Assembly (NCBI RefSeq): GCF_032854445.1
Contig: NC_088295.1
Coordinates: forward strand, 39,481,385 to 39,545,384
DNA length: 64,000 nucleotides
Origin: Liolophura sinensis
Taxonomy: Eukaryota; Mollusca; Polyplacophora; Chitonida; Chitonidae
Direction: 5' to 3'
Each line of letters begins with the position of its first letter. Position 1 is the stretch's first letter. Under the pieces are notes generated by a model that was not told the origin of the DNA, did not search any database, and saw only the letters and a program-made list of their open reading frames with translations. The position numbers and the translations under genes were made by a program. Of the stretch, positions 32,401-35,161 are shown in pieces.

Positions 32401-35161
32401 GCAGAGAATCCGGTAAATGAATACAAAATGTTTCTAAATAAAGCCAGGCAATGTTCATTTGTCTCAGAGGTAGATACCAACTTTGGTATGTTCATTTTAT
32501 TTGTGTTTGAAACTGTGAAGTGGTTGGTGGATGAAGTCATCAAACATTACACTGCCGACCTAGGCTATGGCTGACGAATAGTACCCCGAAAAGCTGGTCT
32601 AAGGATGACTCATATTCACTGATACACAGAGGCCATGTATTAGCCTGGACGGCTCGATTATTTACTTATTCATTTGATCTGAGTTTTCCGCGGTACTCCA
32701 GAATATTTCACTAATATGGCGGCGGCTGCACCTGATTATGACATTGTATCAGTGTTTAAGTACTCTATCAGCAAAGTTTGTTGCATATGTGATACACAAT
32801 ACTAATACATGGTCAGTTCGCACTAAAGCTAAGGCATTTGCGAATATCTTGCAACCACTGGCACCAACTTTTTCTTACAAAAATGTTAGTCAAACTTGGA
32901 AATAAGTTCTGTTCTCTGTGTGATGCCATGTCTACCCGAATCATTAAAAGTATGTCACAACCTTACTTGAGTGTTCGAAGCCACAGAACAGCTCAACATG
33001 CAAAGGTGAACAACAATATTGTTTTGAAAGCTTAATTTAAAGTGAAATAAAAGTATGAAGTGTTAGATGCTTTGTAAATGACAAGACAGCTGCACATGTC
33101 AAATGTTGCTGCTGTGACAGTTATGAGTAGGGCACAAAAACGAGATATCACGGAACTATCAATGGTATACGCCATAGAATGAGGTAAAAAGTGTACAGAA
33201 GATGGCAAAAGCACTGGTCAATGTAATTCACCTGACTTTTGTCCAACATGACATTAGGTATGGCAGGTATATTTATTCTGCTAACTTACTCGTGGGAAAG
33301 ATCTGTAACAATACAGAAATTTTCCAATGAAGTTCTCTGAGCTGTGAACAAGACCTTATCCAATATTAGTTTCCAGCCGATTTCTATGCTCGACAAATAT
33401 CAGTGCGGGAGCTCTGTGCTAATTTTCACTAGACTGCCTAACCTAGCGATGCTGTGCTTACAACATAGATATTTGCTTCATTGAAATTCTGCATTGGAAA
33501 TCATATCCCCATTCGCAACAACTACTAGTAAAAGCAAATGAGAAACTGAAAATGTCATGCTGCAGTTTTATTGGCCCTGGAAAGCCATCTCAGCCATGAA
33601 ATTCAAAGGCCACTGTCTGCGACTGGCTGCTTCTTTGACCACGGCTGCTCTGCTGTGGCGAGTGTAGTGGCGTGCTGGTTGGAGTGCTAATGTGGCTTAT
33701 TGTGGATGAACAAGGTTTTGGTTTTTACAAAGTTTAAGGGATATGGATGCTTAGGAAAAGTTGATTGTATTATGGATGTAAAACATTATGGACGTAAAAT
33801 ATCCTGTGATGTAACTATGAATGCCAGAATTTTAAATTAGCCAAGAAATCGGCTGTGAACTTTAAATACTTGAAATATTGGGTAAGGTCTAGTTCACAGC
33901 CGAGAAACTATCCATAGTAAAATATGTATATCCATGGGAACAGAGCCTCAAGTCTGCAGAACGAAAATACAAAAAGAACACTTTTGTGTCATCAGCAAAA
34001 GTCAAGTGAATTACATTTGTGAACGGCTTCTTGGTCTTCTAGACAATTTTTACCCAATTCTGTGGCGCATGAAAGTGCTATCTTGCTTTTGTGCCCCACT
34101 CACAAATTAAACAGGTGCAGGTATTGTTCTCTTGCATGGCGCATGCGCTCATGTGGCTGACGCTTAGGTGGTGAAAAAAAAAAAAAAACTGCTGTCACAG
34201 TGTCATTTTAAAAGCATCTGGCACATCACACTTCTACTTCACTCAACAATTAGCTTTCAAAACAACACAGTTTTCCATCTTTGCATGCTAAGCTGTTCTA
34301 TAGATTGGAAAACTTCAATAACGTTGTGATATATTTTTACATAAGGTCAGATTCTCAATAGACGTCAACATGACTGACATTACATACCAATTTAGGTCAA
34401 TTGGGTAGTCAGCATTATGCGGTGACGTTTTTTTCGAATTCGGGTGAGATTTTCCAAGGAAATATCAGGCCAGTGTCAATGGTGGCAAAAGGTGCATAAA
34501 TGTCTTAGCCTGTGAGCAGACCATGTATTAAGTTGATTTGGATATTAAGCATTGCGTCTGCAGCGAGCTTTGCTGATGGGGTAGCTGAATACAGAGACTA
34601 TGTCCTAATTGGGTGCACACGTTGATTGGGCTAAGCATGGCAGTGGTTTCTGCGTATCAGTGAATATAAACCATCTGACTGGGCTGGGCTTTCGGACTAA
34701 ATTTTAAAGCTGCATAGTGTGTCCATCCAGGTGGACTAGTCTAAATTTTAGGTGAGCGAGTGGGCGATACTCCAAAAAATAAAAACAAACAAAATGTCTT
34801 CCCTACCTACAGACCTGACCATATCGACACTTTGAAGTGCTCTGATAGGCAATGGGCCCAACAACAATATGTGTCTCTAAGTTCTGGTCTGACGGTGTGC
34901 TGTGGCTAAATTAGCTGAATTTCTTCACATCCATCAGCTGTAGATTATTAACGGTCCAGTTTTCGTTGTATTCTGTACATTTTTGTTACCGCATAATTGA
35001 ACTCATTCAATTAATTAGAACACAATACAGCTAAAACATAGCAGTTGAGAGGCCAGTGTAGCTCTGTTAATTATACTTACAGCTATTTCAGCTCTCCGAC
35101 GAACTAACTCATTCAATTCTGATCTTGTATCCACAACCTGTGCAGGCCGCTGCGACGCCAT
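29484..35161 (-). CDS. MEAF6: Chromatin modification protein MEAF6 (Eaf6), last exon not located
   Basis: MEAF6 is a small subunit of the NuA4/TIP60, HBO1 and MOZ/MORF histone acetyltransferase complexes and acts in the nucleus. Exons, high to low: 35081-35161 (ATG at 35161), 32037-32152, 31744-31831, 31014-31074, 29941-30136, 29484-29514; all phases close. Family matches: [14 protein letters not shown]; then [20 protein letters not shown] and [13 protein letters not shown] (nearly identical to human); [20 protein letters not shown]; and the basic C-terminal [19 protein letters not shown]. The exon 29941-30136 region (S/T/N/Q-rich) is less conserved. The exon 29484-29514 ends at a good GTATGT donor in phase 0, so at least one more short coding exon should lie below 29484. 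Start context AAAATGGCGTC also resembles a YY1-type element. Confidence 0.95.
30487..30730 (-). repeat. SINE family A, diverged copy
   Basis: Reverse orientation: TTTATTTATCTGATTGTTCC, ACACCAAACTCAAGAATTTTTCAC, then GGTTTGAACTCAAATCTCG near 30700 (box B-like). Decayed; directly abuts family C copy 3. Confidence 0.55.
30790..30985 (-). repeat. SINE-like family C, copy 3
   Basis: Matches 13195-13353 over about 155 bases. It ends with GAATTACAGTAACCACTAGA, whose complement TCTAGTGGTTACTGTAATTC looks like a tRNA box A. Confidence 0.75.
31175..31265 (-). repeat. SINE family A, fragment
   Basis: Reverse orientation: TTATTTATTTGATTTGTGAGG, then GCAGCCAGCATTGTGGTGG and GGTGGAAACCCACAACCATT. In a MEAF6 intron. 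Confidence 0.65.
32590..33385 (+). repeat. Unidentified dispersed repeat X, copy 1 (left arm of inverted pair)
   Basis: Shares ordered blocks with copy 2 (inverted) and copy 3: ATTCACTGATACACAGAGGC, GATTATGACATTGTATC, AATACATGGTC, CAGAACAGCTCAACATGCAAAGGTG, TTTTGAAAGCTTA, CACCTGACTTTTG and GTGAACAAGACCTTATCC. It carries no coding potential I can see. A SINE A fragment (32661-32730) is inserted near its start. Lies in MEAF6 intron 1. Confidence 0.8.
32661..32730 (-). repeat. SINE family A, short fragment
   Basis: TTACTTATTCATTTGATCTG, then GAATATTTCACTAATATGGC and GGCGGC, in reverse orientation, inside repeat X copy 1. Confidence 0.55.
33870..34696 (-). repeat. Unidentified dispersed repeat X, copy 2 (right arm, inverted)
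   Basis: Reverse complement of copies 1 and 3 in the same block order: ATTGGGTAAGGTCTAGTTCACAG at 33878 mirrors CTGTGAACAAGACCTTATCCAAT at 33340. TGCATGCTAAGCTGTTCTATAGATTGG at 34284 mirrors CCAATCTATAGAACAGCTCATCATGCA of copy 3. TGCGTATCAGTGAATATAAACC at 34650 mirrors the start block. Spacer to copy 1 is about 480 bases. Confidence 0.82.

What the first reader, a model, noticed from the sequence alone, without database searches (positions are those of the whole stretch)
32590..34696. Large inverted pair of an unidentified 1-kb repeat in MEAF6 intron 1
Repeat X copy 1 and copy 2 lie head to head with a 480-base spacer. The block order mirrors over more than 700 bases, so the MEAF6 primary transcript could fold into a long imperfect hairpin. 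Such structures attract A-to-I editing or give rise to small RNAs.
Basis: partly seen in the sequence, partly recalled or inferred. Interest (0 to 1): 0.62.

Follow-up and report, generated by a model that had tools for sequence, protein, structure and literature searches.

The report
Two opposed old transposon copies, intron
Two old, independently inserted copies of a common non-coding DNA transposon happen to lie in opposite directions inside one intron of a chiton gene, so the transcript can fold on itself, as inverted repeat pairs do in most animal genomes; this is ordinary.

Summary
The inverted pair is real. Its arms are window 32582-33392 and 33837-34700, with a 444-bp spacer, inside the 2,928-bp intron 1 of a MEAF6 homologue on the minus strand. 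The genome matches the chiton Liolophura sinensis assembly. Each arm is one copy of a dispersed, non-coding, roughly 860-bp element with short terminal inverted repeats (TAGCC...GGCTA) and 9-10-bp target-site duplications. The arms carry different duplications. They are no more alike (80.5% over aligned bases) than other pairs of family members (79-85%), and arm 2 is closer to a third window copy than to arm 1. So these are two independent old insertions of a non-autonomous DNA transposon, not a palindromic duplication or a foldback element. ADAR-type genes are present in the genome. Editing or small RNA is therefore possible but untested, and the duplex is full of mismatches and gaps. Nothing suggests a function. 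It is a new member of a very common kind.

The parts
32582..33392 (+). Arm 1: copy of repeat X (811 bp including a nested insert), degenerate termini
32573..32581 (.). Left target-site duplication of arm 1, GACGAATAG
   Evidence: 7/9 match to 33391-33399; register uncertain by a few bases because the termini are degenerate
33391..33399 (.). Right target-site duplication of arm 1, GACAAATAT
   Evidence: overlaps the last two bases given for arm 1, since the register is ambiguous
32656..32728 (-). SINE-like tail inserted in arm 1; absent from arm 2 and copy 3, present at about 10 other places in the window on both strands
33393..33836 (.). Spacer between the arms (444 bp), no other hit in the window
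33837..34700 (-). Arm 2: complete copy of repeat X (864 bp)
33829..33836 (.). Target-site duplication of arm 2, ATTTTAAA
34701..34708 (.). Target-site duplication of arm 2, ATTTTAAA
43841..45035 (+). Copy 3 of repeat X, interrupted by a ~350-bp common element at about 44184-44535 and lying inside a longer repeat
32153..35080 (-). MEAF6 intron 1, which holds both arms
   Evidence: splice sites; flanking exons match Pfam NuA4

Best explanation
Repeat X is an old family of non-coding, cut-and-paste DNA transposon copies (about 860 bp, with internally deleted forms down to about 95 bp). It has short terminal inverted repeats and makes 9-10-bp target-site duplications. Two copies inserted independently, in opposite directions, 444 bp apart in intron 1 of MEAF6. 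Shown: boundaries, duplications, dispersal, independence of the two copies. Computed: the pre-mRNA can fold into a long imperfect hairpin like that of an inverted Alu pair. Inferred from general knowledge only: it may be weakly to moderately edited by ADAR before the intron is discarded. No host function is indicated.
For: Dispersed family with 988 and 251 first-look candidate places for the two arms, only 40 scored in each search. Hits stop at common ends. Target-site duplications over 25 copies: identity 0.57 against 0.27 for shuffled partners, z about 9, confined to one register; best fit 9 bp in 13 copies and 10 bp in 5. The arms have different duplications. Arm1-arm2 identity 80.5% against 79-85% for other pairs; arm2-copy3 84.3%. 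Short forms of 94-113 bp with both ends. No long reading frame. Fold -721 against -518 +/- 9 for shuffles and -560 with arm 2 flipped.
Against: No autonomous partner with these ends was found near hAT or MULE transposase matches (against 20, 21), so the superfamily is open. Arm 1's termini are degenerate and its duplication is only 7/9. There is no RNA evidence of any kind.
Confidence: 0.9

Rival explanations
1. A single foldback element, or an inverted segmental duplication: the two arms arose together as one long palindrome.
For: Mirrored block order with similar ends.
Against: Separate, different target-site duplications. The arms are no closer to each other than to random family members. 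Other fetched copies are single.
Confidence: 0.03
2. A host-selected RNA hairpin: the pair is kept because its duplex recruits ADAR or Dicer and regulates MEAF6.
For: Strong predicted fold; deaminase genes present; neighbouring inverted repeats are the main editing substrates in animals (PMC5625713).
Against: Arm divergence is the ordinary level for the family, with no sign of compensatory upkeep. The arms carry nested inserts and many gaps. No RNA data.
Confidence: 0.03
3. Repeat X is part of a longer element such as an LTR or a LINE end.
For: Some copies share more than 1 kb of flank.
Against: The shared flank is a second repeat into which X inserted, with a CAATTTCC duplication at the junctions. 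Most other copies end sharply at the same two ends.
Confidence: 0.04

Closest known systems
Inverted Alu pairs in human introns
   Same: Two dispersed repeat copies in opposite directions within 2 kb of one pre-mRNA, with a predicted intramolecular duplex (PMC526178)
   Different: A DNA transposon rather than a SINE; a much more gapped duplex; editing not shown
Non-autonomous Mutator-like (MULE) elements
   Same: 9-10-bp target-site duplications, no coding capacity
   Different: Very short terminal inverted repeats; no transposase with matching ends found
Non-autonomous hAT elements / MITEs
   Same: Short terminal inverted repeats, internally deleted short forms, duplications close to 8 bp
   Different: Duplications fit 9-10 bp better than 8; no transposase with matching ends found

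Membership tests
Non-autonomous terminal-inverted-repeat DNA transposon | defined termini shared by dispersed copies | tested here: met
Non-autonomous terminal-inverted-repeat DNA transposon | target-site duplication of near-fixed length | tested here: met
   z about 9, confined to one register; 9 bp in 13 copies, 10 bp in 5
Non-autonomous terminal-inverted-repeat DNA transposon | terminal inverted repeats | tested here: met
   TAGCCnnnAAATC at both ends; short
Non-autonomous terminal-inverted-repeat DNA transposon | no transposase gene inside | tested here: met
   no frame above 65 aa in the arms
hAT superfamily | 8-bp target-site duplication | tested here: inconclusive
   8- and 9-bp registers overlap; no copy with a good match fits 8 best
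hAT superfamily | the same ends on a hAT transposase element | tested here: inconclusive
   none of 64 domain places within 6 kb of a listed X end, compared by eye (against 20, 21)
Mutator-like superfamily | 9-11-bp target-site duplication | tested here: met
Mutator-like superfamily | the same ends on a MULE transposase element | tested here: inconclusive
   none of 13 domain places near a listed X end, compared by eye (against 20, 21)
Foldback element | both arms moved as one unit with one duplication around them | tested here: not met
   separate duplications at each arm; single copies elsewhere
ADAR substrate of the inverted-repeat kind | predicted long intramolecular duplex | tested here: met
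   longest helix 27 bp
ADAR substrate of the inverted-repeat kind | clustered A-to-G differences in RNA | not testable with these tools
   no RNA reads held

The most novel reading that the evidence does not exclude
The intronic hairpin is edited or processed into small RNAs that affect MEAF6 expression in chitons.
Probability: 0.04. Interest if true: 0.4.

Novelty: new member of a known kind. Interest (0 to 1): 0.12.

Why it matters
Little by itself. It gives a clean definition (ends, duplications, short forms) of what appears to be an unclassified chiton transposon family, in an assembly whose published repeat table leaves 14.04% of the genome unclassified (PMC11068029). It also gives one concrete candidate place to look for RNA editing in a chiton.

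Tried and rejected
A palindromic duplication or foldback element was rejected. An LTR or a longer coding element was considered because some copies share long flanks; the flanks prove to be another repeat into which X inserted, with a CAATTTCC duplication. The search for an autonomous partner by hAT and MULE domains found none. Rfam gave no match in the window. Copy numbers are therefore rough lower bounds. A first, badly offset count of target-site duplications gave no clear result and was replaced. Circular RNA promoted by flanking inverted repeats was dismissed because both arms lie in one intron with no exon between.

Full report
Observation. Self-comparison of 31.5-36 kb gives a series of collinear inverted blocks between 32604-33390 and 33839-34675, the best being 139 nt at 77%. 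The unit is about 860 bp and the spacer 444 bp.

Setting. The window is C1:39481385-39545384 of a 609.46-Mb, 632-contig genome. The lengths of C1 (96,433,062) and C9 (37,343,639), listed, equal the longest scaffold and the N50 of the chiton assembly first published as Liolophura japonica and corrected to L. sinensis (PMC11068029 and PMC12441733). Exons read on the minus strand at 35081 and above and at 32152 and below join into a protein that matches Pfam NuA4 at E 2.6e-18. The MEAF6 identity therefore holds, and intron 1 is 32153-35080.

What the arms are. Both arms hit many places genome-wide (988 and 251 first-look candidates, of which 40 were scored in each search). Alignments of independent copies stop at the same two ends: TAGCCCGAAAATCCGG on the left and CAGCCGATTTCTTGGCTA on the right. 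In 25 copies with both ends, the flanks match as target-site duplications: mean identity 0.57 at the predicted register against 0.27 for shuffled partners, z about 9, with neighbouring registers at background. Best-fit lengths are 9 bp in 13 copies and 10 bp in 5. Copies of 94, 108, 113, 314 and 530 bp with both ends exist. This is the anatomy of a non-autonomous DNA transposon with MITE-like short forms. The duplication length favours a Mutator-like over a hAT origin. However, the register is ambiguous by one base, and none of the 64 hAT or 13 MULE domain places lies near a listed X end (compared by eye). The superfamily is left open.

Two insertions, not one unit. Arm 2 is flanked by ATTTTAAA on both sides. 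Arm 1 is flanked by GACGAATAG and GACAAATAT (7/9; only 7 of 420 mismatched flank pairs do as well). With nested inserts removed, arm 1 and arm 2 are 80.5% identical over aligned bases, within the 79-85% range of all pairs of family members tested; arm 2 and the third window copy are 84.3%. Among 72 fetched loci with the family, only the two that cover this pair show an inverted partner of 100 bp or more nearby. A further inverted pair, C1:42454892(+)/42455229(-), appears, so the arrangement is not unique. Arm 1 also carries a nested SINE-like tail at 32656-32728, seen elsewhere in the window on both strands.

Fold. The MEAF6 sense strand of 32560-34720 has a predicted MFE of -721 kcal/mol. Twelve dinucleotide shuffles average -518 +/- 9, and the same stretch with arm 2 flipped gives -560. 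Of 721 pairs, 503 join the two arms. Uninterrupted helices reach 27, 25, 22, 21 and 19 bp. The global alignment has 559 matches, 131 mismatches and 295 gap columns, including the nested tail. The hairpin claim is sound as a prediction. The genome has matches to the adenosine-deaminase domain at several loci. Neighbouring inverted repeats are reported to be the main animal editing substrates, mostly when nearly perfect (PMC5625713), and in human Alu pairs editing correlates with distance and homology (PMC526178). Some editing is therefore plausible. None of this was tested here, because no RNA data are held.

Verdict. This is an ordinary intronic inverted pair of an old transposon family. The functional suggestion is untested, and no evidence favours selection. 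Interest is low.

Noticed in passing
window 906-2245, minus strand: Probable hAT-type transposase remnant: a Dimer_Tnp_hAT domain match at about 990-1160 (E 2.1e-5), with a 321-aa frame just upstream.
   Followed up: partly
window 51743-52011: A 139-bp unit tandemly duplicated at 99% identity.
   Followed up: no
window 44184-44535: A very common element of about 350 bp (many genome places at 83-88%) inserted into the third copy of repeat X.
   Followed up: no
G000 C2:7124615-7371817: Seven right ends of repeat X, several of them spaced about 29-30 kb apart, which suggests a large tandem or segmental array.
   Followed up: no
G000 C3:20691849, C5:1080813, C9:3466305, C10:24549694 and others: About a dozen left ends identical over 29 bases (CTAGCCCGAAAATTCAGTCTAAGGATGGC), perhaps a younger subfamily; the two that were read share only about 380 bp at 76%.
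   Followed up: partly
L052, L054, L064, L021 flanks: Repeat X sits inside a longer, also amplified repeat, with a CAATTTCC duplication marking the insertion.
   Followed up: partly
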